Shown: positions 22,913 through 40,411 of the stretch, in pieces
Layout: every line of letters starts with the position of its first letter
Numbering within the stretch: the stretch's first letter is position 1
Assembly (NCBI GenBank): GCA_019186985.1
Contig: JABARQ010000008.1
Location: 920 to 64,919, forward strand
DNA from: Prosthecobacter sp.
Lineage (GTDB): Bacteria > Verrucomicrobiota > Verrucomicrobiia > Verrucomicrobiales > Verrucomicrobiaceae
DNA: 64,000 bases
Direction: 5' to 3'
Notes under the pieces: model-generated
What the model was told of the DNA's origin: nothing
What the model saw: the letters and a program-made list of their open reading frames with translations, nothing else
Database searches by the model: none
Program-made: the position numbers and the translations under genes

Positions 22913-24889
22913 ATGAGCACTGAAAATCTCCCCGCTGAATCCAAGCCCTGCGGCTCTTGCGAGCACGGGCATGATGACACACCGCTGCCGCGCAATGCGC
23001 TCGTCATTGCCTCCGGCGTGACGCTCACGCTCGGGATGGCGTTGCGCTTCCTTGATGTCGGAGCCGCCGCGCTGCACACGGCGCTGTTTGCGCTCGCCAC
23101 CTTGTCCGGCGGCCTGCTGGTCTTTCCCGCCGCATTCAAAGCACTGCAAAAAGCAAAGCTCGACATGAACGTGCTCATGACCGTGGCCGTCACCGGCGCA
23201 TGGCTCGTCAGCGAAGGCGCGGAAGGTGCCGCCGTCGTCTTCTTGTTCGCCCTTTCAGAGTTGCTGGAGTCCTGGAGCGTCGGCAGGGCCAGGCGTGCCA
23301 TTGCGTCATTGCTCAAGCTCGCCCCCGAGACGGCCTTGATGCGATCTAAGGATGGCAGTCTGATCGAAACGGACGTGAAGGAGGTGCCTGTGGGCGCGGA
23401 GATCAGCATCCGCAGCGGCGCACGCATTCCGCTCGATGGAAAAGTGCTCGATGGCAGCTCCAGCGTGAACCAGGCACCCATCACAGGTGAATCCGTGCCC
23501 GTGGACAAAAAGCCGGGCGACACCGTGTTTGCAGGCACCATCAATGGCGAAGGCTCGCTCACCGTGCAGGTGACGAAAGCCGCCGCAGACTCCACCCTCG
23601 CCCGCATCATCAAGCTGGTCGAGGAGGCCGAGGAGCAGAAAGCGCCCACCCAGCGCTTCGTGGACAAGTTCGCCACGATCTACACGCCTGCTGTGTTTAT
23701 TGTCGCGCTCCTCGTTGCCCTGCTGCCGCCGCTGCTCATGGGCGGCGCATGGTCGGAGTGGACGTATCGCGCCCTCGTGCTGCTCGTCATCGCCTGTCCT
23801 TGTGCGCTCGTCATCGCCACACCCGTCTCCATCGTCTCCGGCCTCACCGCACTGGCACGGCGCGGCGTGCTCATCAAAGGCGGCGCTTATCTTGAGGCCG
23901 TGGGCAGGCTGCGTGCCCTCGCGGTCGATAAAACAGGCACCATCACGCAGGGGAAACCTCGGGTCACCGGGGTCATCGCCCTGGCAGGACTCAACGCAGA
24001 CGAAGTGCTGCGCCGTGCCGCTGCCATCGACATCCATTCCACACACCCGCTCGCCCAGGCCGTGGTGGAGGCCGCGCTGGAGCGTGGCATCACACCCGAA
24101 CCTGCTGCGGATTATCGCTCCATCACTGGACGCGGTGCCAGCGCCGCCATCGAAGGTCATCCGCACTTCATCGGCAATCACAAGCTCGCCCACGAACTCG
24201 GCGTCTGCTCGCCCGAAATCGAGGCACGTCTCGCGGAAATCGAAAACCGTGGGGAATCCCTCGCCATTCTCGGCCACACGCCGCATGAAGGCTGCGCAGG
24301 TGCAGCGCTCGGCATCCTCAGCATCGGCGACACCCTGCGCCCGGAAGCCGCTGACGCGCTCACCCTGTTGCATGAGGCAGGCATCGAAAACATCGTCATG
24401 CTCAGCGGGGACAACCAGCGCACCGTGGATGCCATCGCCCGTCTTGCCGGCATAGATGAAGCCCACGGCGACCTCATGCCCGAGCAAAAGATCGAGCACA
24501 TCCGCCGCCTCATGGCCGCGCATCACCACGTCGGCATGATCGGCGACGGCGTGAACGACGCCCCCGCGCTCGCCCTCGCGAGCGTCGGCATCGCCATGGG
24601 AGCCATCGGCAGCGACACCGCCATCGAGACTGCCGACATGGCCCTCATGCAGGACGACCTCACCCGCGTGGCCGAAGCCATCCAACTCGGCCGCCGCACC
24701 CTGCGCATCATCCAGTTCAACATCGCCTTCGCCCTCGTCGTGAAGGCCATCTTCCTCATCCTCGCCTTCACCGGCCACACCAGCCTGTGGCTCGCCATCC
24801 TCGCCGACACCGGCGCGACGCTGCTCGTCATCATGAACGCGCTGCGGCTCCTCGGAGGAACGCCAAACCTCAACTCAAGCGCCCCATGA
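22913..24889 (+). CDS. zntA: P1B-type metal ATPase, probably Zn/Cd/Pb
   Basis: 658 residues. There is no N-terminal HMA domain, only a short CGSCEHGH metal motif at residues 13-20. Ordered signatures: TGES near 190, CPC near 294 in TM6, phosphorylation site DKTGT near 339, GDGVNDAP near 543, and a TM8 with LADTGATLLVIMNALRL, where the D-x-G form is typical of the Zn/Cd/Pb group (P1B-2). It pumps metal from the cytoplasm into the periplasm, where RND systems can take over. The next gene overlaps it by 4 bp. Confidence 0.9.
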   Translation: MSTENLPAESKPCGSCEHGHDDTPLPRNALVIASGVTLTLGMALRFLDVGAAALHTALFALATLSGGLLVFPAAFKALQKAKLDMNVLMTVAVTGAWLVSEGAEGAAVVFLFALSELLESWSVGRARRAIASLLKLAPETALMRSKDGSLIETDVKEVPVGAEISIRSGARIPLDGKVLDGSSSVNQAPITGESVPVDKKPGDTVFAGTINGEGSLTVQVTKAAADSTLARIIKLVEEAEEQKAPTQRFVDKFATIYTPAVFIVALLVALLPPLLMGGAWSEWTYRALVLLVIACPCALVIATPVSIVSGLTALARRGVLIKGGAYLEAVGRLRALAVDKTGTITQGKPRVTGVIALAGLNADEVLRRAAAIDIHSTHPLAQAVVEAALERGITPEPAADYRSITGRGASAAIEGHPHFIGNHKLAHELGVCSPEIEARLAEIENRGESLAILGHTPHEGCAGAALGILSIGDTLRPEAADALTLLHEAGIENIVMLSGDNQRTVDAIARLAGIDEAHGDLMPEQKIEHIRRLMAAHHHVGMIGDGVNDAPALALASVGIAMGAIGSDTAIETADMALMQDDLTRVAEAIQLGRRTLRIIQFNIAFALVVKAIFLILAFTGHTSLWLAILADTGATLLVIMNALRLLGGTPNLNSSAP

Positions 24890-25599: not shown

Positions 25600-25625
25600 G
25601 AGGGGTTCACGCGCAGGCGGAGTTG
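25600..25625 (+). promoter_or_regulatory. Proposed ECF promoter, copy 1
   Basis: GAGGGGTT, 11 bp, GGAGTTG. The same blocks with the same spacing occur at 27476, 27969 and 32764. It lies 54 bp before the start of the 25680 gene. Assignment to the sigma factor at 26867 is inferred. Confidence 0.75.
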
Positions 25626-25679
25626 CACCCCATGAACGCCACTCAAAGCGTCCCCAACCAAACCAAAGCAAACCCAACC

Positions 25680-25967
25680 ATGAAAACGAAACTCACCCTC
25701 CTCGCCGCCACGATCCTCGTCGGCTTCAGTTCCACCAGTGCCAGCGCCAATCCTTGGAAAGGCCTGCCTCCTGGATTCAACACCCCCGCCCGCTCCTCCT
25801 CCGTCCCAGCCTTCAAATCCTGCTGTGACAGCAAAACCCGCTACACCAGCAACGGCATCAAAGGCGGCATCGTGGTGAACAAGAGCATCGTGTGCAACAC
25901 CGGCTGCGCCGTTCCTCATGCTGGCAAAAGCTGCACTGCCGCCGAACGCAAGCAGTGCACGAACTAA
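25680..25967 (+). CDS. Exported Cys-rich small protein
   Basis: 95 residues from ATG 25680, preceded by the leader AACCAAACC and the proposed ECF promoter. Signal peptide to about SASAN; mature part has six Cys (SCCDS, VCNTGCAV, SCTAAE, QCTN). Probably binds metal or forms disulfides in the periplasm. Not recognised as a known family. Confidence 0.72.
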   Translation: MKTKLTLLAATILVGFSSTSASANPWKGLPPGFNTPARSSSVPAFKSCCDSKTRYTSNGIKGGIVVNKSIVCNTGCAVPHAGKSCTAAERKQCTN

Positions 25968-25985
25968 ACCGCCCGCACACCCGCG

Positions 25986-26014
25986 ACCCGCCAGGAACGG
26001 ATGACCTGGCGGGT
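25986..26014 (+). terminator. Hairpin terminator
   Basis: ACCCGCCAGG pairs perfectly with CCTGGCGGGT around a 9-nt loop, 19 bp after the 25680 gene, followed by TTGATCTT. It separates that gene from the sigma module. Confidence 0.75.
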
Positions 26015-26050
26015 TGATCTTCCACTCATCATCCGACACCTTTCCGCGTC

Positions 26051-26374
26051 ATGAACGATCACGAACTCGACTCCCTCATCCGCCAGTCTCATCCCAAAAT
26101 GGAACTGCCTGCCTCCTTCAACCGCGAGGTCTGGGAACGTGTCTCCGTGGCTTCCCCGGCGTCCGCTCTTGGCGGATGGCGCGAGATTGCGGATGCGTTG
26201 TTCCTCTGGATTTCCAGGCCCGCGCCTGCGGTCGCCGTCATCGCGGTGATGCTGGTCTTTGGCGCGAGTCTTGGCGGTCTTACCGTGAGAGAGAGCAGCG
26301 CATCCGCCCAGCGCACCGCCTACTTCGCCTCCATCAATCCGCTGCATCCAGCGCATCTCGCCACCCAGCAATGA
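26051..26374 (+). CDS. Anti-sigma factor-like membrane protein (CnrY-like position)
   Basis: 107 residues: a cytoplasmic N-terminal part of about 60 residues (DHELDSLIRQSHPKMELP), one membrane helix at about 62-80, and a short periplasmic tail. This is the shape of CnrY-type anti-sigma factors, which hold the ECF sigma factor at the membrane. The next gene overlaps by 4 bp and the sigma gene follows, the same Y-X-H order as cnrYXH in Cupriavidus. The sequence itself is too short for firm homology. Confidence 0.72.
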   Translation: MNDHELDSLIRQSHPKMELPASFNREVWERVSVASPASALGGWREIADALFLWISRPAPAVAVIAVMLVFGASLGGLTVRESSASAQRTAYFASINPLHPAHLATQQ

Positions 26375-26850
26375 AACGCGGCCTCATCATTCTCCTGCTT
26401 GCCGTGGCAGCCGCCACGGCGGCTTTTTTCATCACGCGCAACCAATGCCAGTGCGGCACCCGTCTGGACGCCACTTCCCATGATGGCGAGACGATGCTGC
26501 CCGAGCTGGAATGGCTGCACCAGGAACTCAAGCTCGACGACACTCAGTTTGCGAAGGTCAAAGCCCAGCACCTCGCCTACAAGCCCACCTGCGAGGCCTT
26601 GTGCATGAAAGTGATGACAGCCAGGAAGAAGCTCAGCCAGCTTGCTGCTCAAGGAAACCTGTCCTCGCCGGAGCTTGATGCCGCCTTGCAGGAGCAGGCC
26701 GCCGTTCACGTCGAATGTCAGAAGGCACTCCTGCGGCACCTTCACCAAACAGCAGGACTCATGTCCGAGTCCCAGGCACGCCAGTATCTCGATGCCATGC
26801 TGCCGCAGGTCATCGGCGCGGCGGCAGAACCCGTCAGCCACGGGCATTAA
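26371..26850 (+). CDS. Periplasmic metal-sensor-like protein (CnrX/ZraP type)
   Basis: 159 residues: N-terminal membrane anchor (MKRGLIILLLAVAAATAAFF), then a four-helix periplasmic part with candidate ligands (NQCQCGT, WLHQEL, CEALCMK, HVECQK, HLHQ). Spacing of helices fits the heavy-metal-resistance sensor family. Its product would transmit metal binding to the anti-sigma protein encoded by the overlapping gene. Confidence 0.75.
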   Translation: MKRGLIILLLAVAAATAAFFITRNQCQCGTRLDATSHDGETMLPELEWLHQELKLDDTQFAKVKAQHLAYKPTCEALCMKVMTARKKLSQLAAQGNLSSPELDAALQEQAAVHVECQKALLRHLHQTAGLMSESQARQYLDAMLPQVIGAAAEPVSHGH

Positions 26851-26866
26851 ACCACGCGTGCCGCTC

Positions 26867-27433
26867 ATGAGCTATCAAGACGAGGAAGACATCCCGCTCA
26901 TGCAGAAGCTCGCCGCTGGCGAGGATCTGGCTTTGAACGAGCTGATGCACCGTTGGCGGGATCGAGTGGCCTCCTTCCTCCTCCGCATGGTCGGAGATCA
27001 TGCCACGGCCACCGATCTTGCGCAGGAAACCTTTGTGCGCCTCTACACCAGTCGAAAGAGCTACAAGCCCGCCGCCGCCTTCTCGACCTACCTCTTTCAC
27101 ATCGCCTCGAATCTCGCCCGCAGTCATGCCCGCTGGAAAGGCAGGCATCCCACCGTGCCGATGGAGGATGAAGACGGTAATCTCACGCATGATCCGGTCG
27201 ATGCACAACCCACGCCGGACGAGGCCGCCACGCTCAACGAAAAGGCGGCGCTGGTGAACAAGGCCATCGAGCGGCTGCCCGCTGAACTGCGGGAGGCATT
27301 GCTGCTGTTCGCCGTCGAGCAGATGAGCCAGGCCGAGATCGCCACGGCGTTGCGATGCTCAGTCAAAGCGGTGGAAGTGCGGGTTTATCGGGCACGTCAG
27401 ATGCTTCGTCAGATGCTCGATGCCAGCCTGTGA
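26867..27433 (+). CDS. ECF RNA polymerase sigma factor (CnrH-like)
   Basis: 188 residues from ATG 26867, 16 bp after the sensor gene. Sigma region 2 covers about 20-90 (DLAQETFVRLYTSRKSY), an acidic linker follows, and region 4 covers about 125-185 (LPAELREALLLFAVEQMSQAEIA, then a helix-turn-helix). Cytoplasmic, directing RNA polymerase to its own promoters. With the two genes before it this forms a metal-responsive signalling set. The proposed promoter at 27476 starts 42 bp after its stop. The cnr name describes the arrangement, not proven orthology. Confidence 0.88.
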   Translation: MSYQDEEDIPLMQKLAAGEDLALNELMHRWRDRVASFLLRMVGDHATATDLAQETFVRLYTSRKSYKPAAAFSTYLFHIASNLARSHARWKGRHPTVPMEDEDGNLTHDPVDAQPTPDEAATLNEKAALVNKAIERLPAELREALLLFAVEQMSQAEIATALRCSVKAVEVRVYRARQMLRQMLDASL

Positions 27434-27475
27434 CGCGCTGATCTTGCGCTGCATGAGGCGCGGATTGTGAAGCTG

Positions 27476-27501
27476 GAGGGGTTCTCACGGAGGTGGAGTT
27501 G
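27476..27501 (+). promoter_or_regulatory. Proposed ECF promoter, copy 2
   Basis: GAGGGGTT, 11 bp, GGAGTTG; 65 bp before the start of the 27567 gene. Confidence 0.75.
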
Positions 27502-27566
27502 CAAACGATGAGGGCGGGTCAGTCGCTCGCTCCGAAAACCAAACACAAACCAAACGCATCCATACC

Positions 27567-27881
27567 ATGAAAATCAAACTCATCCGCACCTCGCTCCTCG
27601 GACTTGCTGCCATCGGCACGCTGCTCCTCGCGTCCTGCCAGGCCCCATCCTCCGCCCCCACAGCCGCCGTGAGCTGTGACAAGTGCGGCACCGTCCACTT
27701 CAAAGCGCCGTCCTCGGGTTACGGGCCGGGGAACAAAGGCATCGTCACCCTGCGTGACGCCAGCCGCATGTCCTGCCCGGATTGTGAGAACCAGGTCATC
27801 GCCATGATGAAGACCGGCAGCCTCACCAAGCATGTGTGCAAATCCTGCGGCGGCGCACTGCGCCACTGCACGCAGCACTAA
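27567..27881 (+). CDS. Exported lipoprotein with three Cys pairs
   Basis: 104 residues: lipobox LLASC at about residue 23, then CDKCG, CPDCE and CKSCGG, ending RHCTQH. The paired cysteines look like a zinc-ribbon-like or soft-metal site anchored to a membrane. Proposed ECF promoter upstream and terminator downstream make it a single-gene unit. Confidence 0.75.
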   Translation: MKIKLIRTSLLGLAAIGTLLLASCQAPSSAPTAAVSCDKCGTVHFKAPSSGYGPGNKGIVTLRDASRMSCPDCENQVIAMMKTGSLTKHVCKSCGGALRHCTQH

Positions 27882-27901
27882 GCACGCTGAAAGCCTACCG
27901 G

Positions 27902-27931
27902 AGCCGCCTGTGATTCACCTCGCAGACGGCT
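27902..27931 (+). terminator. Hairpin terminator
   Basis: AGCCGCCTG pairs with CAGACGGCT (one mismatch), followed by TCTTCATTTT, 20 bp after the 27567 gene. Confidence 0.7.
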
Positions 27932-27968
27932 TCTTCATTTTCAGCCGTCGCTTCATTTAAAAAATGTT

Positions 27969-27994
27969 GAGGGGTTGGTCCGGCGGTGGAGTTG
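27969..27994 (+). promoter_or_regulatory. Proposed ECF promoter, copy 3
   Basis: GAGGGGTT, 11 bp, GGAGTTG, with an A-rich stretch just upstream; 52 bp before the 28047 gene. Confidence 0.75.
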
Positions 27995-28046
27995 CACCCT
28001 CCGTCCGCACCTTTGGACAACCACAAAGCCAAACTCTGAATCCATC

Positions 28047-28304
28047 ATGAAACTCACCCTTGCCCTCCTTTCCAGCCTGCTGCTCGGCACTGGACTCGCT
28101 TCTGCCGCTGATACTGGCGTGCCCGCCACCTATCCCCTCAAAAAGTGCGTCGTTTCCGACGAAGACCTCGGCACCATGGGCAAGGCCGTCAAAGTCACCC
28201 ACGAAGGCACCGACGTGTATCTCTGCTGCAAATCCTGCACGAAGGACTTCAACAAAGAGCCTGCCAAGTTCGTCGCCAAAGTGAAAGCGGCGGAGAAGAA
28301 ATAA
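28047..28304 (+). CDS. Small exported YHS/TRASH-like protein
   Basis: 85 residues: signal peptide to about ASAAD, then CVVSDEDLG, and YLCCKSCTKDFNKEPAKF near the end, the Cys spacing and aromatic context of YHS/TRASH metal-binding domains. Likely a periplasmic metal carrier. A 39-residue lipoprotein gene follows. Confidence 0.75.
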   Translation: MKLTLALLSSLLLGTGLASAADTGVPATYPLKKCVVSDEDLGTMGKAVKVTHEGTDVYLCCKSCTKDFNKEPAKFVAKVKAAEKK

Positions 28305-28340
28305 GCGCCGCCCGCCACTCACCCACGACTTCATCCAGCC

Positions 28341-28460
28341 ATGAAACAGCTCCTTCTTTCAATCCTGATCCTCGGCGGTGCCGCCATCGCCCTCAGCAGT
28401 TGCACCAGCAAGGCTCCTGCAACGCCAAAACCCCACTGCGCGAGCTGCGAGCAGCACTGA
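28341..28460 (+). CDS. Tiny lipoprotein
   Basis: 39 residues. Lipobox-like ALSSC at about residues 17-21, then a short Pro/Ala spacer and a C-terminal HCASCEQH, a minimal metal-binding motif. It is 36 bp after the 28047 gene and directly before a terminator, so it is probably expressed with that gene. Confidence 0.6.
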   Translation: MKQLLLSILILGGAAIALSSCTSKAPATPKPHCASCEQH

Positions 28461-28484
28461 TCGGCCTCGTCTCTTGTGTGTGCC

Positions 28485-28523
28485 AGACTGGTCGGATTCA
28501 CCTCCGGCCAGTCTGTGGTTTTT
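28485..28523 (+). terminator. Rho-independent terminator
   Basis: AGACTGGTCGG pairs with CCGGCCAGTCT (one G-T pair) over an 8-nt loop, followed by GTGG and five Ts. Confidence 0.85.
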
Positions 28524-28558
28524 ATCGAATCCAGCCCAACCTCTCATCCTCCCTCACC

Positions 28559-29668
28559 ATGAAGCATCTTTGCGCTCTCGTTCTCCTGCTTACCTCATCC
28601 TTGAATGCCCAGGTGCAGGTGGAAGCCCTGCCTGAGTCCGGCATCCAGCCGCAGGTCGTCATGACCGGCTCCGGGCTGGTGCATGTGGTTTATTTGAAGG
28701 GCGACCCGAAAGGCTGCGACATCCGCCATGCCACCCGCAAGGCCGCTGGTGGCGCATGGTCGGCACCGGTGACGGTGAACAGCGTGCCGCGCTCCGCCAT
28801 CGCCGCCGGAACGATCCGAGGGGCGCAGATCGCTCTCGGCAAGGATGACAGCCTCCAGGTGATCTGGAACGGCAGCACGAGCGGAAAAGGCGCGAAGCAA
28901 GGCCAGGCTCCGCTGCTCCACGCCCGGCTGCTGCCAGGAGCACGCGAGTTCACGCCGCAGCAAGACCTGCTGGGTGAAACCACCGCGCTCGATGGCGGGG
29001 CTTCCATCGCAGCGAATGACAAGGGCCATGTCGCCGTCGTCTGGCACGCCTCACCCGCCGGTGCGTCCGAGGAGCGGAGCCGTCTCGTTTGGGTGCGCTA
29101 TTCCGCCGACGATGGCGGCATCTTTTCCCCTCCGGCCTCGCTCAATCCAAGCCAGCATGGCGTTTGCGCCTGCTGCTCGCTCCGAGCACATCTAGCCAGT
29201 GACGACACGCTCAGCGTGCTCTACCGCGCCGCCACAGCGCCGAAGGAACGTGGGATGCACCTCATCACCAGCAAGTCTGGCCGTGCGACGCTGAGAAAAC
29301 TGGATGACTGGAATGTCGCCATGTGCCCGATGAGCAGCGCCAGCCTCGTTCCCGAGGCACGGGGACTGCGTGCCGCATGGGAAAATCAAGGCCGCATCAT
29401 CACCGCCCTGCTCAGTGAAACGGCCAGCAAGAACGACAAAACCGGCGCGGACGATGCCAAGCATCCCGTGCTGGCGCAAAACAACCGAGGGCAGACCCTC
29501 ATCGCCAGCGTGACCGGCTCCGGCTGGGCCAAGGCAGGCCGTCTCCATTGGGAACTGCTCGACGCCAAAGGAAAGAGCATGGACTCCGGTGATGGCGAAA
29601 AACTTCCCGTCTGGAGCTACGCCGCCGCCTACGCCCGGCCTGACGGCAGCTTTGTGATTTTGCAATAA
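28559..29668 (+). CDS. Exported beta-propeller-like protein with CACC motif
   Basis: 369 residues: signal peptide (MKHLCALVLLLTSSLNAQ), then repeated beta-rich segments of the sialidase/BNR sort (VHVVYLKGD; LQVIWNG; VAVVWHAS; LVWVRYSADDGGIFS). A striking HGVCACCSLRAHL near residue 205 and MCPM near 260 give clustered soft-metal ligands inside the propeller. No catalytic sialidase residues are evident. Its last 26 bp are repeated at 30851-30876. Confidence 0.68.
   Translation: MKHLCALVLLLTSSLNAQVQVEALPESGIQPQVVMTGSGLVHVVYLKGDPKGCDIRHATRKAAGGAWSAPVTVNSVPRSAIAAGTIRGAQIALGKDDSLQVIWNGSTSGKGAKQGQAPLLHARLLPGAREFTPQQDLLGETTALDGGASIAANDKGHVAVVWHASPAGASEERSRLVWVRYSADDGGIFSPPASLNPSQHGVCACCSLRAHLASDDTLSVLYRAATAPKERGMHLITSKSGRATLRKLDDWNVAMCPMSSASLVPEARGLRAAWENQGRIITALLSETASKNDKTGADDAKHPVLAQNNRGQTLIASVTGSGWAKAGRLHWELLDAKGKSMDSGDGEKLPVWSYAAAYARPDGSFVILQ
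29639..29664. repeat. 26-bp direct repeat, copy 1
   Basis: The 3' end of the 28559 gene; repeated exactly at 30851-30876, on the far side of the acyltransferase gene. Confidence 0.95.
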
Positions 29669-29718
29669 CGGCTTCCATGCTCATCCGAATCCTCAACTGA
29701 CGAGTCAATTCGCCCTCC

Positions 29719-30855
29719 ATGTCACATCAGCTCGACGAAGACAGCGAAGCATTCATCAATGTCTTGCGTGGCTTCGCAGCTCTGGCGGTGCTTATCACCC
29801 ACTCATTGGATTTCGGTATTCGAGGCGTCTATGGGCATAGCCTCCAAGAGGCACCTGCATTCTGGCGATGGATGGGAGCGAGTGTAGGTCACGGCAGCTT
29901 TATGGTATGGTGTTTCTTCGTTGTCTCCGGTCTTTGCATCCATTTGTCGATCATGCGCAGCACCAAGCTGGGCGCTTTTAATTGGCGTAGCTATGCCGTG
30001 GCCCGAATCACCCGGATTTACCCTCTGTTTTTACTTGGGCTGGTGCTCGCCATTCTTGTCTGGTGGTTCACAGACGATCTCAGTGGCACACATGCCACAC
30101 GACCCTGGCCGCAGTTTTTCGCGAGCTTGCTGTCACTGCACATTTTCACCAGCAACTTCCCGAACTTCATGACTTCGTGGAGTCTGAGCAATGAGATGAT
30201 CTATTATGCAGCTTGGCCGCTGCTGTTGTGCCTTGTGGGATGGCAGGCTTCTAAAGCCGTTGTTCTGGGTGGAATGGCATCCTTGCTAGTTTGCTTGTTG
30301 ATTGGGGTGCTCTGGGCCGTGCTGCGCCGGTTCGAGACCAGCACTGCCATCAACGGCCTTTGGTCAGTTTGTGTCCTGTTCCCATTGTGGTTGGGCGGGG
30401 CTTGGCTGGCGGAAAATTGGCAGCGCGTTAGCCAGCATGTCACCCGGCGACTCTGGTATATGTCATTTCCTCTGTGTCTCGCGGCTGAACTCAGCCTGGC
30501 CTGGGCCAAGTTCAATGAAAGGTCACAGGCCGTGATTGATTCCACGGCCCTTCTGGCTCTGCCTGGACTTGTATTGCTGCTGGCAGGATCACGCCATGCC
30601 CGGCTGAGCTCGCCCGTTTGGCTGCAACCGTGGATACGCTGGTGCGGCCAGTTCAGTTACCCATGCTATATACTGCAAATGCCGTTGCTCGTTTTACAGT
30701 TGCGGCTTGTGATCCCGTATTTGCCTGAGCCAGTTGTCGCGCATCCATTCTCGCGCGCAGCGGTGTTACTGCTGCCCACGCTGCTGCTGTTGGCATGTAT
30801 TGGCCCACGGTTGGAGCGTGGCATCATGGGTTGGCGCTCGAAACTCCTTGCCTGA
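29719..30855 (+). CDS. Membrane acyltransferase, acyltransferase-3 (OafA) family
   Basis: 378 residues with ten or so hydrophobic helices. The opening LRGFAALAVLITHS near residues 14-27 carries the family R/H site, and RITRIYPLFL follows near 96. Members transfer acyl groups to sugars or peptidoglycan at the inner membrane. It has more A/T, different codon use and no metal-related feature; with the flanking 26-bp repeat it looks like an inserted gene. Confidence 0.82.
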   Translation: MSHQLDEDSEAFINVLRGFAALAVLITHSLDFGIRGVYGHSLQEAPAFWRWMGASVGHGSFMVWCFFVVSGLCIHLSIMRSTKLGAFNWRSYAVARITRIYPLFLLGLVLAILVWWFTDDLSGTHATRPWPQFFASLLSLHIFTSNFPNFMTSWSLSNEMIYYAAWPLLLCLVGWQASKAVVLGGMASLLVCLLIGVLWAVLRRFETSTAINGLWSVCVLFPLWLGGAWLAENWQRVSQHVTRRLWYMSFPLCLAAELSLAWAKFNERSQAVIDSTALLALPGLVLLLAGSRHARLSSPVWLQPWIRWCGQFSYPCYILQMPLLVLQLRLVIPYLPEPVVAHPFSRAAVLLLPTLLLLACIGPRLERGIMGWRSKLLA

Positions 30856-30876
30856 CGGCAGCTTTGTGATTTTGCA
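30851..30876. repeat. 26-bp direct repeat, copy 2
   Basis: Identical to 29639-29664, starting within the last codons of the acyltransferase gene (30851-30855). Confidence 0.95.
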
Positions 30877-30902
30877 CTGAAACGGCAGACACATCTTTCG
30901 TG

Positions 30903-31727
30903 TCATTTACCTTCCCGCCATTCCTGAAACGTGCTGCACAGACTCATTCCATTTCGGACGTGCTTTTGCCCGACCGGAGTTTTCGCCAGCTTTTCATAAA
31001 CCAGGAACTCAACCAGTTTGGGGAACTTCTCGGCGGGAATGTGGCCCCGGCTACGTTTGACGAGCCGGAACTTTGTTTTGATGTGCTTGCCGATCTTGCC
31101 CCACAAAGCGGCTTCATCTCGCTCAATGGGTGACATGAACTTCACATACAGGTCACAGAGGTAATCGACATAGCCGGAGAGGTTGGCGTCAGCGCCGATG
31201 CTGTTCGCCGGGTATCTGCCAGTCTCTTTTTTGGGTTTGCTGCCGACGTGAATATTGATCTTGCCTTGGTTGTGACCGCCGATGGCGACGGCAACACCAC
31301 CAGATGACGCCCGCGCATCCGCATTCCCGTGAACGGGGCTGCTTTTGATGCTGTTGGTGGTCTTCTTCGACTGTTTGGCGTGAATGAGCGCGGCTTGCTC
31401 AGCCATGCGCGGCGTGATCTCCTTCTGAGACTCACGCTCGTGCATCTCCTTGATCTCAGTGAGAATATCGACGGAGTATTTAACCGGCGATTTATCGACC
31501 TCTGTGTGATGAGTCGGGCACAGCAGGATCAAATTCTTGAAGTCGTCCTTTTCAGCGGCGGTCAGCGCGGGGTCGTATCTCGGCCCGCCTTTGCGCCTCG
31601 CCCTGATATGGCAGATTTCCGCGATGGAATGATCCTCCACGACAAGCGGTGCATGGCACCAGGGAATGGCGCACTGGTTGCCGGATTTGGCGAACAGGCG
31701 CTTCACTACGGTTAGACTGACTGGCAT
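30903..31727 (-). CDS. HNH endonuclease with C-terminal helical domain
   Basis: 274 residues. N-terminal HNH fold: CAIPWC near 19, ICHIRARRKGG near 38, LILLCPTHH near 68. A Gly-rich stretch (VAVAIGGHNQGKINIHVG) near 145-165 resembles linkers common in bacterial conflict proteins. The C-terminal ~90 residues are helical and unrecognised. It is followed upstream (minus strand) by the CoiA-like gene 17 bp away, so the two form an operon, with possible function in DNA restriction or uptake. Not part of metal resistance by content. Confidence 0.75.
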   Translation of the reverse strand: MPVSLTVVKRLFAKSGNQCAIPWCHAPLVVEDHSIAEICHIRARRKGGPRYDPALTAAEKDDFKNLILLCPTHHTEVDKSPVKYSVDILTEIKEMHERESQKEITPRMAEQAALIHAKQSKKTTNSIKSSPVHGNADARASSGGVAVAIGGHNQGKINIHVGSKPKKETGRYPANSIGADANLSGYVDYLCDLYVKFMSPIERDEAALWGKIGKHIKTKFRLVKRSRGHIPAEKFPKLVEFLVYEKLAKTPVGQKHVRNGMSLCSTFQEWREGK

Positions 31728-31744
31728 GGTGATTTCGTATGGGG

Positions 31745-32701
31745 TTAATCTTCCTCCTCCAACTCTCCGAACGTGGATGGATAGTGATGCCGAAGAAAGG
31801 GGGCGTCATCGTCAGGCCACCAACGGCGGACGGTATCCACCCAGAGCCGCGCACGAGGCACCGGCCTGGTTTCTCCCCACGGCATGAATTCCTCGCGGTC
31901 ACGCATTCTGAAGGCGCGATGAATGGGGATGGTGCCACGGTAAGGGCGGGGGCGTCTGATGATCTTGTAAGGTTTGTCGAAGCTGCCCGCCTCCTCCCAA
32001 TAGCCATTCTCATTGGATCGAAATGTCACTGAGCGCGTCGCCGCCGCGAAATGAACGGGCAGAACCTCGCCACCCATGCCGGGCAGCCAGTAATAGACCC
32101 GCCCGAAATACATCGCATGAAGGTATCTCTCGATCAGCCTCGGGCGGAAAATCTCCTCGCCTATCTCGCGGGTCAAAGGCACCACCCAGAGGACAGCAAT
32201 GCCAAGCTCTGAGTAGTCACGGGTGCGGGCAATGAGACTGCGGATGCCCAGGGCGGACTTTTGCACTTCAATGACCACACGCCTGCCCTTGATTGTTCCC
32301 TCAATGTCTGGCTTTCGCGCTTTGCGGCGTGTTTCCCGGTTCCCTCGAATCTTTTTGGTGTCACAGAACCATTCGGAGCCAGGACAGGCCGAGCGCAGGT
32401 CTTCGTAGATGCGGCGCTTGCACTCATAATGCAGCCAGGACTCTCGCGAGGAGTCGAGAGGGGATAAACGGGCGTGATGCGCAAAATGGTCGCGCATTTT
32501 CCAGGGATGCCGGTGGATCACGTCGGAAAGGCAGCCGGGGCAGAGAAAAGGGCCGTCATCTCTGCTCACACTCGACGCATGGACTCTTTGACCGTTGCCA
32601 CGATGGACGGCGAACCCCTCCAGCAGTGCCGAGCATCCCACTTCCCGCGCATCCCGGCCGGGTGGTAAATAGGGCTGCTGTCCGTCGTCGCGCCAACTCA
32701 T
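31745..32701 (-). CDS. CoiA-like nuclease-domain protein
   Basis: 318 residues. A Cys pair (CPGCLSDV near 54) and HFAHHA come first, then a PD-(D/E)xK-like core: KPDIEG near 128 and VVIEVQKSALG near 142, followed by ELGIAVLWVV. This is the layout of the CoiA competence family, which acts on incoming DNA. First gene of the two-gene minus-strand operon with the HNH protein. Confidence 0.72.
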   Translation of the reverse strand: MSWRDDGQQPYLPPGRDAREVGCSALLEGFAVHRGNGQRVHASSVSRDDGPFLCPGCLSDVIHRHPWKMRDHFAHHARLSPLDSSRESWLHYECKRRIYEDLRSACPGSEWFCDTKKIRGNRETRRKARKPDIEGTIKGRRVVIEVQKSALGIRSLIARTRDYSELGIAVLWVVPLTREIGEEIFRPRLIERYLHAMYFGRVYYWLPGMGGEVLPVHFAAATRSVTFRSNENGYWEEAGSFDKPYKIIRRPRPYRGTIPIHRAFRMRDREEFMPWGETRPVPRARLWVDTVRRWWPDDDAPFLRHHYPSTFGELEEED

Positions 32702-32763
32702 GGTGATGAGTCAGCTATTTGTGGCAGCGTGAAGCAACCCGCAAAATATTTTCAAACATTCTT

Positions 32764-32789
32764 GAGGGGTTGTATAAGGAGCGGAGTTG
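32764..32789 (+). promoter_or_regulatory. Proposed ECF promoter, copy 4
   Basis: GAGGGGTT, 11 bp, GGAGTTG, preceded by AT-rich DNA; only 26 bp before the 32816 start, placing the third RND operon under the same control. Confidence 0.75.
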
Positions 32790-32815
32790 AACCAGCACGA
32801 ACGATTCTTTCCGTC

Positions 32816-33187
32816 ATGAACTGCCCCTGGATCAAAACCTTCATTACTGCCTTCCTATGGATGGCGGTGATCGCTGGTGCCAGGGTGGCAGTTGGAGCAG
32901 GAAACGGCAACAGCGAGGTCAAAGCCTCCCCTTGTGAGCATGGGTGCTGCATCAACGGCGAATGTGGATGCAGCATCGCTCCAGCACAGACGCCGGAGGC
33001 TCCCAAACCCGCGCTGCCTGCGCAGACATCGCCAGTGTCGAAGCTCATGCCACTGGCGCTGCCTCTGGCGGAAAAAAGTCTCCGGCCTCTGGCTGGCACG
33101 CCGGAGACTCGGGCTGTCATCATGCCCGAAGCAGCACGGCCACACCGGCCAGCGGCGCTGACGCTGCACTGCGCCCTTCTCATCTGA
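32816..33187 (+). CDS. Exported Cys-rich protein at the head of the third RND operon
   Basis: 123 residues: N-terminal hydrophobic segment, then CEHGCCINGECGCS (six Cys in 14 residues) and a long Pro/Ala-rich region ending in LHCALLI. Analogous in place and style to 6214 and 12819. Probably a periplasmic soft-metal binder, here most likely copper because the following pump is CusA-like. Confidence 0.72.
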   Translation: MNCPWIKTFITAFLWMAVIAGARVAVGAGNGNSEVKASPCEHGCCINGECGCSIAPAQTPEAPKPALPAQTSPVSKLMPLALPLAEKSLRPLAGTPETRAVIMPEAARPHRPAALTLHCALLI

Positions 33188-37027: not shown

Positions 37028-40000
37028 ATGATCGAGGCCATCATCCATTGGAGCCTGAAAAATCGCTTCCTTGTCGCCTGTGCGGCCCTGCTGCTCATCG
37101 CGATGGGAGTGCGGGCCATCTACCTCACGCCGGTGGATGCCATCCCCGATCTCACGGAGAACCAGGTGCTCGTCTATGGCGAGTGGATGGGCCGCAGTCC
37201 GCAGGAGGTCGAGGATCAGGTCACGTTCCCGCTTTCTACTGGCCTGCAAGGTCTGGCAGGAGTCAAGGAGGTGCGGGCGACCTCGATGTTCGGCTTCTCA
37301 CTCATCACCATTATCTTCGAGGACAAGGTGGACACCTACTTCGCACGGGCGCGGGTGCTGGAGCGGCTGAACTACCTGCAAGCCTCCATGCCGGAAGGTG
37401 TGAAGCCGCAGCTCGGCCCGGACGCCTCCGGCCTCGGCTGGGTGTATCAATACTACTTTCATGTCGATCCCGCGCAGGCGCAGGATGGCGGCTATGACCT
37501 CGCCGCGCTGCGCTCGCTGCAAGACTGGTATGTGCGCTACCAGCTCGCCAGTGTGCAAGGCGTGGCCGAGGTGGCGAGCATCGGCGGCTTTGTGAAGCAG
37601 TATCAGGTGGAGCTGAACTCCACCAAGATGCGCGCGGTGAATGTCACGCTCATGGACGTGATGACGGCGGTGCAGAACGCGAACCTCAATGTCGGCGGCA
37701 AGGTGGTGGAGGAAAATGGCGCGGAGTTTGTGCTGCGCGGCATCGGTCTCGTCACCAGCGTGGAAGACCTCGAACTCGTGACGGTGAAAGCGATGGCGGG
37801 CACGCCGGTGTATTTGAAAGACATCGCCACCGTGCAGATCGGCGGTGATTTCAGGCGTGGAGCGCTGGACTTGAACGGTCATGAGGCCGTGGGCGGCACC
37901 GTCGTCATGCGCACCGGCGAAAACGCCAAGGCCGTGATCGAGCGCATCAAAGAAAAGATTGCCCAGATCGCCCCCAGCCTGCCACCGGGCGTCACCATCA
38001 AGTCCTTCTATGATCGCAGCCAGCTCATTGACAGCACCATCGGCACGCTCAAGCACGCGCTGTTGGAGGAGTTCATTCTCGTCACGCTCGCCCACATTCT
38101 TTTCCTCTGGCACTTCCGCAGCATCCTCATCGTCACACTGCCGCTGCCCATCTCCATTTTGATCTCCTTTCTGCTGATGAAGGAGTTCGGCATCACCAGC
38201 AACATCATGTCCCTCACCGGCATCGCCATCGCCATCGGCGTGCTCGTGGATGCAGCCATCGTGGTCACGGAAAACGTCATCCGACACTGCGAGGAGGCAG
38301 AACATAAAAAAGGCGGGCGGCTGAGCGCTCAAGAAACCTGGGATGTCACGCTCGTCGCCTGCACGCAGGTCGGCAGGCCCATCTTCTTTGCCATGGCGAT
38401 TATCATCCTCGCCTTCGTGCCGGTTTTTGCCCTCGCTGGTCAGGAGGGAAAGTTGTTCCACCCGCTCGCCTTCACCAAGACCTTCGCGATGATCGGCTCC
38501 ACGCTGCTCGCCGTCACACTGGTGCCGGTTTTGTGCTCGCTGCTCGTGCGCGGGCCTTTCCACTCGGAGGAAAACAACATCGTGATGAAGTTCCTGCTGC
38601 GTCTGTATGAACCGACGCTGAACTGGGCGCTCAATCATCGCAAAACCGTCATTGGCATGGCGATGATGATCCTCGGCGTCGCGCTGCTCACCGCCTTTGG
38701 CCTGCCACGCGCCACCGTGAAGCAGCTTCGCGATGCGGGCTATCCACGACTCGCTGAGGTCGTCACGGGCTTTGGCAAAGAGTTCATGCCACCGCTCAAT
38801 GAAGGCAGCCTGCTCTACATGCCCGTGATGATGCCGAAGACCGGCCTCAAAGAAATCCAGCGCGTCATGTCCTGGCAGGACACCGTGATCGCCGCCACGC
38901 CCGAAGTCGAGTCTGTCGCGGGCAAGCTGGGGCGTTTTGAAACCGCCACCGATCCCGCTCCCACCGAGATGCTGGAGACCACGATCATGCTCAAGCCTGA
39001 ATACATCCCCAATGGCCGCTGGAGCGTGAAACGCAATCCCGCATGGCGAGACGGCATGACGGTCGAGAAACTCAAAGCGGAGCTGACGGAAAAAATGAAG
39101 CAGGTGCCCGGTTATGTGCCCGCGTTTCTGCAACCCATCGAAAACCGGATTCTCATGCTCTACACCGGCATCCGCGCCCAAGTCGGCGTGAAGATTTATG
39201 GCGACAGCCTCGACAAGATTCAGCGCAAGGCCTTCGAGATCGAAAAGCTCATCAACAGCATCGAAGGAGCCGCCGGAGTCTCGCCCTCTCGCGTGCAGGG
39301 CAAACCTTACCTCAACGTGCAGGTGGATCGTCAGGCCATGGCCCGCTACGGCCTCAGTGCGAAGGACGTGCTCGATGCCGTGGAGGTTTCCATCGGCGGC
39401 AAGAACGTCAGCACCACCATCGAAGGCCGTCAGCGCTTCCCCATCCAAATCCGTGTGCAGCGCGGCGAGCGTGATGACATCGAAAAGCTCAGCAGCATCC
39501 TCGTCGCCACACGCCAGGGCATGAGCGCACCGAGTTCGCCTTCCATGGGCGGTGGCGGTGGCATGACTGGAGGCGCAGCCGCAGCGCCAGCTTCCAGCAC
39601 GGCATCCAGCGCCTCCAACCAGCCCGTGACCTACATCCCGCTCGGCATGGTGGCAAAAATCACCCGCGAAGTCGGCGCGAACGAAATCGCCAGCGAGAAC
39701 GGCCGCCTGCGCTCCTACGTCCAGGCCAACGTACAGGATCGTGACCTCGGCGGCTTCGTGCTGGAGGTCGAGCAGAAGCTCAAGACCATTGATTGGGAAG
39801 GCATGACCTACAAGATGACCGGCGAATACGAGAACCAGCGCCGCTTTGTGCAGACCATGCAGATCGTCTTCCCCATCGTGCTGCTCATCATCTTCGTGCT
39901 GCTCTACATCGTCTATCACAGCGCCCTGGAAGCCGCGCACGTCATGCTGGCCGTGCCCTTCGCCCTCAGCGGCGGCGTCCTGCTGCAAAAACTGCTCGGC

Positions 40001-40411
40001 TACAATTTCAACGGAGCCGTCTGGGTCGGCTACATCGCCCTCTTTGGCACCGCCGTTCAGACCGGCGTCGTCATGGTCGTGTATCTCGAAGAAACCGTGA
40101 AGGCCCGCATGGCCCAGCTCGGAGCCGCCTTCGCCTATGCCGATCTCGTGCAAGCCGTCAAAGACGGCGCACGCCTCCGTCTGCGCCCCAAAGTCATGAC
40201 CGTCGCCACCATCGTCGCCTCCCTCCTGCCCATCATGTGGAGCCACCGCCAGGGAGCCGAAGTCATGCAACCCCTCGCCACGCCCGTGATCGGCGGCATG
40301 ATCTCCAGCCTCGTCCACATCCTTATCGTCACGCCTGTGATCTTCCTCTGGCTGCGGGGGCGTGAGTTAAGCAAACATCCTTCCAGAGCACCTCGACTTT
40401 TCACGGAATGA
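37028..40411 (+). CDS. cusA: CusA-like Cu/Ag RND pump
   Basis: 1127 residues, longer than most CusA because of a Ser/Gly/Met/Ala-rich insertion near 835-865 (SMGGGGGMTGGAAA). TM4 has AIG-x3-DAA-x4-EN near 401, as in Cu(I)/Ag(I) exporters, and the pore loop shows MLYTGIRAQVGVKIYG and other Met residues where CusA has its Met relay. Pumps monovalent copper or silver from the periplasm outward. Last gene of the operon; ends 31 bp before a converging gene. Confidence 0.9.
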   Translation: MIEAIIHWSLKNRFLVACAALLLIAMGVRAIYLTPVDAIPDLTENQVLVYGEWMGRSPQEVEDQVTFPLSTGLQGLAGVKEVRATSMFGFSLITIIFEDKVDTYFARARVLERLNYLQASMPEGVKPQLGPDASGLGWVYQYYFHVDPAQAQDGGYDLAALRSLQDWYVRYQLASVQGVAEVASIGGFVKQYQVELNSTKMRAVNVTLMDVMTAVQNANLNVGGKVVEENGAEFVLRGIGLVTSVEDLELVTVKAMAGTPVYLKDIATVQIGGDFRRGALDLNGHEAVGGTVVMRTGENAKAVIERIKEKIAQIAPSLPPGVTIKSFYDRSQLIDSTIGTLKHALLEEFILVTLAHILFLWHFRSILIVTLPLPISILISFLLMKEFGITSNIMSLTGIAIAIGVLVDAAIVVTENVIRHCEEAEHKKGGRLSAQETWDVTLVACTQVGRPIFFAMAIIILAFVPVFALAGQEGKLFHPLAFTKTFAMIGSTLLAVTLVPVLCSLLVRGPFHSEENNIVMKFLLRLYEPTLNWALNHRKTVIGMAMMILGVALLTAFGLPRATVKQLRDAGYPRLAEVVTGFGKEFMPPLNEGSLLYMPVMMPKTGLKEIQRVMSWQDTVIAATPEVESVAGKLGRFETATDPAPTEMLETTIMLKPEYIPNGRWSVKRNPAWRDGMTVEKLKAELTEKMKQVPGYVPAFLQPIENRILMLYTGIRAQVGVKIYGDSLDKIQRKAFEIEKLINSIEGAAGVSPSRVQGKPYLNVQVDRQAMARYGLSAKDVLDAVEVSIGGKNVSTTIEGRQRFPIQIRVQRGERDDIEKLSSILVATRQGMSAPSSPSMGGGGGMTGGAAAAPASSTASSASNQPVTYIPLGMVAKITREVGANEIASENGRLRSYVQANVQDRDLGGFVLEVEQKLKTIDWEGMTYKMTGEYENQRRFVQTMQIVFPIVLLIIFVLLYIVYHSALEAAHVMLAVPFALSGGVLLQKLLGYNFNGAVWVGYIALFGTAVQTGVVMVVYLEETVKARMAQLGAAFAYADLVQAVKDGARLRLRPKVMTVATIVASLLPIMWSHRQGAEVMQPLATPVIGGMISSLVHILIVTPVIFLWLRGRELSKHPSRAPRLFTE

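What the first reader, a model, noticed from the sequence alone, without database searches (positions are those of the whole stretch)
25600..32789. Four identical two-block promoters beside an ECF sigma gene
GAGGGGTT-N11-GGAGTTG occurs at 25600, 27476, 27969 and 32764 with exactly the same spacing, always 26-65 bp before a small exported Cys-rich gene, one of them opening the Cu pump operon. The sigma factor at 26867 lies among them. Together they look like a compact metal-stress regulon with an undescribed promoter consensus.
Basis: partly seen in the sequence, partly recalled or inferred. Interest (0 to 1): 0.8.

Follow-up and report, generated by a model that had tools for sequence, protein, structure and literature searches.

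The report
Promoters of a metal-sensing sigma factor
Four near-identical DNA switches in this bacterium very probably turn on metal-detoxification genes when a CnrH-type sigma factor is released by a membrane metal sensor; it is a new dialect of a known kind of control, and it suggests which DNA letters this sigma family reads.

Summary
The motif is real. GAGGGGTT-N11-GGAGTTG occurs exactly four times in the 5.9-Mb genome, all within 7.2 kb. It is very probably the promoter of the neighbouring ECF sigma factor. In 48 genus genomes, all 16 with the sigma ortholog carry the motif (R/M-relaxed letters), against 2 of 32 without it. Promoter letters change with the sigma: a sister clade, with a paralog in this genome, uses AGGG[T/A]TT-N11-GG[T/G]GTT.

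The 159-aa protein before the sigma has a CnrX fold. Two mapped CnrH promoters carry the same AGGG block at -35, as do CnrH-like loci on the alphaproteobacterial plasmids read. The consensus is therefore a variant of a CnrH-type promoter: AGGG at -35 instead of the usual AAC, and MGTT at -10 where CnrH-type loci have CGTA.

Predicted targets are small Cys-rich proteins with hydrophobic N-termini and a Cus-type pump. Copper or silver is the likelier signal, by inference. Transcription starts, metal response and sigma binding are untested.

The parts
25600..25625 (+). Promoter P1 (-35 GAGGGGTT, -10 GGAGTTG), predicted to drive the Cys-rich gene and the Y-X-H genes; start of transcription predicted near 25633
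   Evidence: start predicted by register with the mapped cnrCp
25680..25967 (+). Small Cys-rich protein with hydrophobic N-terminus (95 aa, 6 Cys), first gene after P1
   Evidence: no Pfam match
26051..26374 (+). Y: 107-aa protein with one hydrophobic segment, candidate anti-sigma (CnrY position; kinship to CnrY by sequence not shown)
26371..26850 (+). X: membrane-anchored CnrX-fold metal sensor (PF13801); H67, C74, C78, E115, H123 invariant in 25 of 25 aligned
26867..27433 (+). H: ECF sigma factor, recognition helix KAVEVR
27476..27501 (+). Promoter P2; start of transcription predicted near 27509
27567..27881 (+). Lipoprotein-like protein, 8 Cys in 104 aa
   Evidence: lipoprotein by reading only
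27969..27994 (+). Promoter P3; start of transcription predicted near 28002
28047..28304 (+). TRASH/YHS-like metal-binding protein (85 aa, 4 Cys); family scores below cut-off
32764..32789 (+). Promoter P4 in front of the Cus-type efflux genes; start of transcription predicted near 32797
32816..33187 (+). Small Cys-rich protein with hydrophobic N-terminus (123 aa, 7 Cys), first gene after P4
33272..34552 (+). Outer-membrane factor (CusC/TolC type)
   Evidence: reading frame; related frame beside the cluster in 9 of 25 named loci; name by position and recall, no family search run
37028..40411 (+). RND pump, CusA type

Best explanation
The four sites are -35/-10 promoters of the ECF sigma factor H (26867-27433). 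H belongs to a CnrYXH-type module: without metal, the membrane protein Y holds H at the membrane. Metal bound by the periplasmic CnrX-like sensor X loosens Y, and H joins RNA polymerase. The holoenzyme reads AGGG(R)T at -35 and MGTT at -10, turns up its own operon from P1, and switches on small Cys-rich metal binders (P1-P3) and a Cus-type efflux pump (P4). Shown here: the sites, their exclusivity, conservation, spacing, co-occurrence with the sigma, clade-specific letters, the CnrX fold (model), the CusA kinship of the pump, and the -35 shared with mapped CnrH promoters. Inferred: that H binds the sites, that Y is the anti-sigma, that transcription starts about 33 nt after the motif start, and that the signal is Cu(I) or Ag(I).
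For: Exact sites only in this cluster. The genomes are related, so the p-values are only a guide. In 45 non-redundant sites the 11-nt spacer is close to random between the two blocks (the block letters were largely fixed by the search pattern). Upstream of Y 35 of 37 clade-A loci have the core motif, the two misses having only 338 nt of DNA (several loci are the same genome seen in two collections). Letters follow sigma clade: position 22 is A/C in 44 of 44 distinct clade-A sites and T/G in 21 of 21 clade-B sites, with that position left free in the search; the clades part at 98/97 support. A core drawn up after reading clade-B loci of other genomes found two sites flanking the paralog sigma on contig C27 of this genome. 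The stretches before the mapped cnrYp and cnrCp starts carry AAGGGG and GAGGGG, and the CnrH helix is SVKAVEGR against SVKAVEVR here. X gives CnrX/NccX as the first 15 structure matches, 5 of them at E 0.001 or better. The pump is nearer CusA (3.3e-236) than ZneA (5.5e-139).
Against: No transcript or binding data. Most sites lie beside the sigma gene, so co-occurrence across genomes partly reflects one inherited cluster; the change of letters with clade is the stronger test. Y shows no significant sequence kinship to CnrY (z 2.8, hhalign none; no CnrY among solved-structure matches) and its model is poor. The -10 differs from that of CnrH. Five clade-B loci (L042-L046) lack the core upstream of Y; by eye they have CGGGATA (L042-L045) or AGGGAGA (L046) at the same spacing. 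After the sigma, 6 of 36 clade-A loci and 1 of 14 clade-B loci with enough DNA lack the core within 220 nt. CnrH is not the sigma's best solved relative: RpoE-type and SigW-type factors score higher.
Confidence: 0.88

Rival explanations
1. The two blocks are an operator (direct repeat GGGGTT/GGAGTT, 19 nt apart) for another regulator, such as a metal response regulator; the sigma is only a neighbour.
For: The two blocks resemble each other; metal genes are often under two-component control (recalled).
Against: Letters co-vary with sigma clade; a GAGGG -35 and CGTA-type -10 at nearly the same register occur at mapped CnrH promoters and CnrH-like loci; an A/T-rich stretch lies about 4-17 nt upstream, as is common at promoters.
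Confidence: 0.06
2. The motif is a conserved mRNA leader element and the promoter lies elsewhere upstream.
For: Weak stem-loops follow the motif more often than chance (mean z -1.70 for 44 leaders of 48 nt against -0.16 for 40-nt upstream controls; mean stem score 11.7 against 8.7 for 200 single-base shuffles, largest 9.8).
Against: The stem-loop lies after the motif, not in it; no consensus fold was found on 34 of the 44 leaders; the register matches mapped CnrH starts.
Confidence: 0.03
3. The module senses nickel and cobalt like cnr rather than copper or silver.
For: Y-X-H layout and CnrX fold.
Against: By the alignment the CnrX positions E63 and M123 (numbered from the M123C mutant chain; ligand roles recalled) are His and Thr here, with two invariant and one nearly invariant added Cys; the target pump is CusA-like with Met kept in three stretches (roles recalled); three related plasmid modules sit beside copC/copD and copper oxidase/copB.
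Confidence: 0.15
4. Chance recurrence of a short pattern.
For: With 3 mismatches the window count is within the shuffles.
Against: Four exact copies where about 0.016 is expected genome-wide, all in 7.2 kb, and conservation in relatives.
Confidence: 0.001

Closest known systems
cnrYXH-CBAT nickel/cobalt resistance of Cupriavidus metallidurans pMOL28 (CnrH promoters cnrYp, cnrCp)
   Same: Gene order Y-X-H then efflux genes; promoter before Y and another just after H; CnrX-fold sensor; sigma helix SVKAVE-x-R; -35 RAGGGG
   Different: -10 is CCGTATA there and GGMGTTGCAC here, one base further from -35 there; Cys/His set in the sensor, small Cys-rich targets and Cus-type pump here; an extra Cys-rich gene comes first; Y not alignable to CnrY
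CnrH-like modules on alphaproteobacterial plasmids, several beside copC/copD and copper oxidase/copB
   Same: Y-X-H order; helix KAVETR or similar; [GA]AGGG then 16 nt then CGTA, the same register as AGGG-16-MGTT here
   Different: -10 CGTA instead of MGTT; different copper genes
Canonical ECF promoters (AAC at -35, CGT at -10; stated in PMC8103513, passages read)
   Same: Two-block promoter with a GT-containing -10; predicted autoregulation
   Different: No AAC at -35; sigma-E has PVGTVRSR where H has SVKAVEVR
CorE copper-dependent ECF of Myxococcus (PMC3107203 and PMC10141476, passages read)
   Same: ECF sigma controlling copper genes
   Different: CorE is described as regulated by its own Cys-rich C-terminal extension rather than an anti-sigma; H ends soon after region 4 and has a Y-X pair beside it

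Membership tests
CnrYXH-type ECF module | Y-X-H gene order with overlapping Y and X | tested here: met
   Window 26051-26374, 26371-26850, 26867-27433; Y found beside H in 37 clade-A and 14 clade-B loci; L026, L054 (cut contigs) show only H; pMOL28 layout
CnrYXH-type ECF module | X is a CnrX-fold periplasmic sensor | tested here: met
   Profile hit NccX 4.7e-5; first 15 structure matches CnrX/NccX for the model
CnrYXH-type ECF module | H is a two-domain ECF sigma related to CnrH | tested here: met
   Pfam sigma2 and sigma4; CnrH 3.8e-21 by profile, though RpoE- and SigW-type factors score higher; z 22 pairwise
CnrYXH-type ECF module | Y is a CnrY-class anti-sigma | tested here: inconclusive
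   Right position and one hydrophobic segment; no significant sequence match, poor model
CnrYXH-type ECF module | Sites before Y and after H with -35 AGGG | tested here: met
   (with the misses counted there)
CnrYXH-type ECF module | -10 CCGTATA as in cnrYp/cnrCp | tested here: not met
   GGMGTTG here
CnrYXH-type ECF module | Metal-induced, sigma-dependent transcription | not testable with these tools
   needs experiment
cnr nickel/cobalt determinant (strict) | CnrX metal ligand positions E63, H119, M123 (roles recalled) | tested here: not met
   His, His, Thr here by the alignment; only H119 is kept
Canonical ECF promoter | AAC at -35 | tested here: not met
   The four window sites have GGGGTT there; relatives have AGGG (where the search pattern required it)
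Canonical ECF promoter | CGT at -10 | tested here: inconclusive
   C at that position in 8 of 44 clade-A sites, A in 36

The most novel reading that the evidence does not exclude
ECF sigma factors of the CnrH type read a second -35 code: the recognition helix KAVE-x-R reads AGGG in place of AAC, from Proteobacteria to Verrucomicrobiota. Three paralogous metal modules in this one cell (contigs C11, C27, C35) are kept apart by small promoter dialects (GGAGTTG, GGTGTTTG, GGGGTAG), so that each sensor drives only its own cluster.
Probability: 0.6. Interest if true: 0.65.

Novelty: new variant of a known kind. Interest (0 to 1): 0.56.

Why it matters
It gives a testable promoter code for CnrH-type sigma factors: which helix residues go with AGGG at -35, and which -10 letter separates sister systems in one cell. 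It lets the regulon be read from sequence in Verrucomicrobiota, where the listings of my searches showed no worked-out metal ECF promoter (partial library, capped lists), and it offers matched sets of sigma, anti-sigma and promoter as candidate orthogonal metal switches.

Tried and rejected
Chance origin of the motif: rejected by whole-genome counts. RNA element: leader stem-loops are enriched, but RNAalifold gave no consensus pairs on 34 of the 44 leaders, so only a weak secondary observation remains. Structure of Y: poor model, mean pLDDT 67.7, and no CnrY link by sequence or hhalign. Distant ECF loci (34-41% identity, L075-L092): 17 of 18 scanned on the sigma strand, none with the motif. 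The helix region was printed for 15 of them: 14 are readable and none has KAVE; L092 was read out of frame. The fourth related sigma of this genome (contig C16, helix RSVEGR) showed no comparable site before its Y. Literature on CnrH promoter boxes: the legend of Figure 5 in PMC4803752 says the -35 and -10 boxes of cnrC are marked, but figures are not held, so I cannot say whether AGGGG was named there. The ECF reclassification paper was not among the 10 listed of 24 papers, and a review on metal-responsive ECFs (PMC6851896) is not held, so a group-specific motif may be in print there.
Full report
Observation. GAGGGGTT-N11-GGAGTTG is present exactly at 25600, 27476, 27969 and 32764. In the whole genome (5,875,079 bases, 55 contigs; the window lies on contig C11) these are the only exact sites; none has one mismatch and 12 have two, against 12 for the backwards control at up to two mismatches. 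Window base composition predicts about 0.016 exact sites genome-wide. Motif end to ATG is 54, 65, 52 and 26 nt.

What surrounds it. P1 precedes a Cys-rich gene followed by three genes: Y (107 aa, one hydrophobic segment), X (PF13801 Metal_resist, 1.6e-7) and H, an ECF sigma. P2 and P3 precede a lipoprotein-like Cys protein and a TRASH/YHS-like protein (matches below cut-off). P4 precedes a Cys-rich gene and efflux genes whose pump is nearest to E. coli CusA (3.3e-236; ZneA 5.5e-139), keeping Met in the LLYMP, APxEM and NRIxML stretches (their role in metal binding is recalled).

Conservation. Sigma relatives were found in the genus (43 of 48 genomes at E 1e-20, of which 16 hold the ortholog) and in named contigs labelled, among others, Prosthecobacter, Verrucomicrobiaceae, Akkermansiaceae and one Opitutaceae; the genus name Prosthecobacter for the window is inferred from these. 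Before Y, 35 of 37 clade-A loci have the core motif, and within 220 nt after the sigma 30 of 36. Over 45 non-redundant sites the consensus is GAGGGRTT-N10-Y-GGMGTTGCAC, with A/T-rich sequence about 4-17 nt upstream, a near-random spacer and a C/A-rich leader (the extraction pattern fixed most block letters, so spacer, flanks and constant distance are the informative part). A CusC-like frame was found in 9 of 25 named loci: in L051, L052, L062, L063, L064, L070 and L073 the efflux genes have a motif of their own in front, in L060 and L061 they follow P3 without one. The other 16 have no CusC match in the DNA held.

Sigma dependence. The 16 ortholog genomes have 69% or more identity, or 81% over a partial stretch in G427. 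All 16 have GAGGGRTT-N11-GGMGTTG, against 2 of 32 others (G396, G421, one site each). The backwards control hits once in 48 genomes.

Dialects. Sigma relatives at 57-62% identity (clade B, same Y-X-H layout) have AGGGTTT or AGGGATT, N11, GGTGTT or GGGGTT at the same places. Position 22 is A/C in 44 of 44 distinct clade-A sites and T/G in 21 of 21 clade-B sites (p 1.6e-17 on sites that are not independent by descent). Five clade-B loci lack the core before Y and show variants of its -35 by eye. The clades part at 98/97. In this genome the core AGGGNTT-N11-GGNGTT gives nine sites: the four, two flanking the paralog sigma on C27, and three others; the backwards control gives none. A third paralog on C35 has GAGGGGTC-N11-GGGGTAGCACC before its cluster. 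In the genus the pattern AGGGTTT-N11-GGTGTT gives 37 sites in 22 of 48 genomes against 5 control sites; 29 of the 37 lie within 2 kb of a sigma of this family.

Kinship with CnrH. On pMOL28 the order is cnrY-X-H-C-B-A-T. Starts of cnrYp and cnrCp lie 24 and 25 nt before the genes (PMC9045368, passages read). The sequences there are AAGGGGGAG-N12-CCGTATAAG and GAGGGGAAG-N12-CCGTATAG; which letters are the boxes is my reading. CnrH has SVKAVEGRIGRAR where H has SVKAVEVRVYRAR and sigma-E has PVGTVRSRIFRAR. I read eight Proteobacterial records: pMOL28, one Cupriavidus relative and six alphaproteobacterial plasmids. In them NAGGG-N16/17-CGTA occurs 22 times, 15 within 100 nt before an annotated same-strand start; 3 of the 22 are in the unannotated record L138. 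The backwards control gives 3. L135 has no site of this form before Y; L136 has none before Y, one before the divergent copper-binding gene and one elsewhere. At the sites before Y, after H and before copC in L134, L137 and L139, and in L138, the gap is 16, the register of the window motif; in the two Cupriavidus records it is 17 at the promoters.

Sensor. X models as a TM helix plus four further helices (pLDDT 80.6) and its first 15 structure matches are CnrX/NccX, 5 at E 0.001 or better. H67, C74, C78, E115 and H123 are invariant in 25 of 25; C116 is nearly so. By the alignment H67 falls on CnrX E63, H123 on H119 and T127 on M123. A change from Ni/Co ligands towards Cys/His fits Cu(I) or Ag(I), as does the pump, but this is inference.

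Mechanism and limits. The most likely working is sequestration of H by Y, release on metal binding to X, autoregulation from P1 and output from P1-P4. No step of this was measured. Starts are predicted about 33 nt after the motif start by register with cnrCp. Y is assigned by position only. A short stem-loop tends to follow the start without a consensus fold.

Print. Seen as listings only: Prosthecobacter with sigma factor and promoter (0 papers); ECF with Verrucomicrobia, target promoter or heavy metal (16 of 16 listed); ECF with GAGGG (3 papers); Verrucomicrobia with ECF, anti-sigma, promoter and copper (10 of 66 listed); CnrH searches (all listed, 15 of 422 listed). None of the listed titles or abstract starts describes this motif. 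Passages were read of PMC9045368, PMC4803752, PMC8103513, PMC3107203, PMC7406223, PMC8999054, PMC10141476 and PMC12153292; no paper was read whole. The library is partial, and the cnrC boxes are in print in a figure I could not see. I therefore call it a new variant of a known kind.

Noticed in passing
29638-29664 and 30850-30876: A 27-bp exact direct repeat flanks the acyltransferase-like gene at 29719-30855 (named by reading), at the 3' end of the 369-aa gene 28559-29668: looks like an insertion with target duplication or a recombination scar. A 17-nt core of it is absent from the six related loci checked, which divergence alone might explain.
   Followed up: partly
29719-32701: Between P3 and the Cus genes lie an acyltransferase-like gene and, on the minus strand, 30903-31727 (HNH-like) and 31745-32701, names from reading only; in L052 P3 and P4 are only about 2.1 kb apart, so this may be cargo.
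   Followed up: no
Clade-B loci in G399, G402, G406, G409, G414, G419: Back-to-back clade-B sites on opposite strands 75-76 bp apart upstream of Y, suggesting a divergent second target.
   Followed up: no
Leaders after the motif in the window and relatives: A short stem-loop right after the predicted start, followed by a C/A-rich stretch up to the ATG, in many but not all sites; possibly an mRNA-stabilising 5' end.
   Followed up: partly
22913-24889: Heavy-metal P1B ATPase gene upstream of the cluster (TIGR01525; nearest equivalogs Zn/Cd type but below cut-off), with a relative (64-99% identity) at a like place in L051, L052, L060, L061 and L066; none of the four sites lies before it.
   Followed up: partly
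L056 (11074-13101), the same contig as G393:C82: A clade-A module and a second Y-X-H module lie in tandem, and both promoter dialects are found there.
   Followed up: partly
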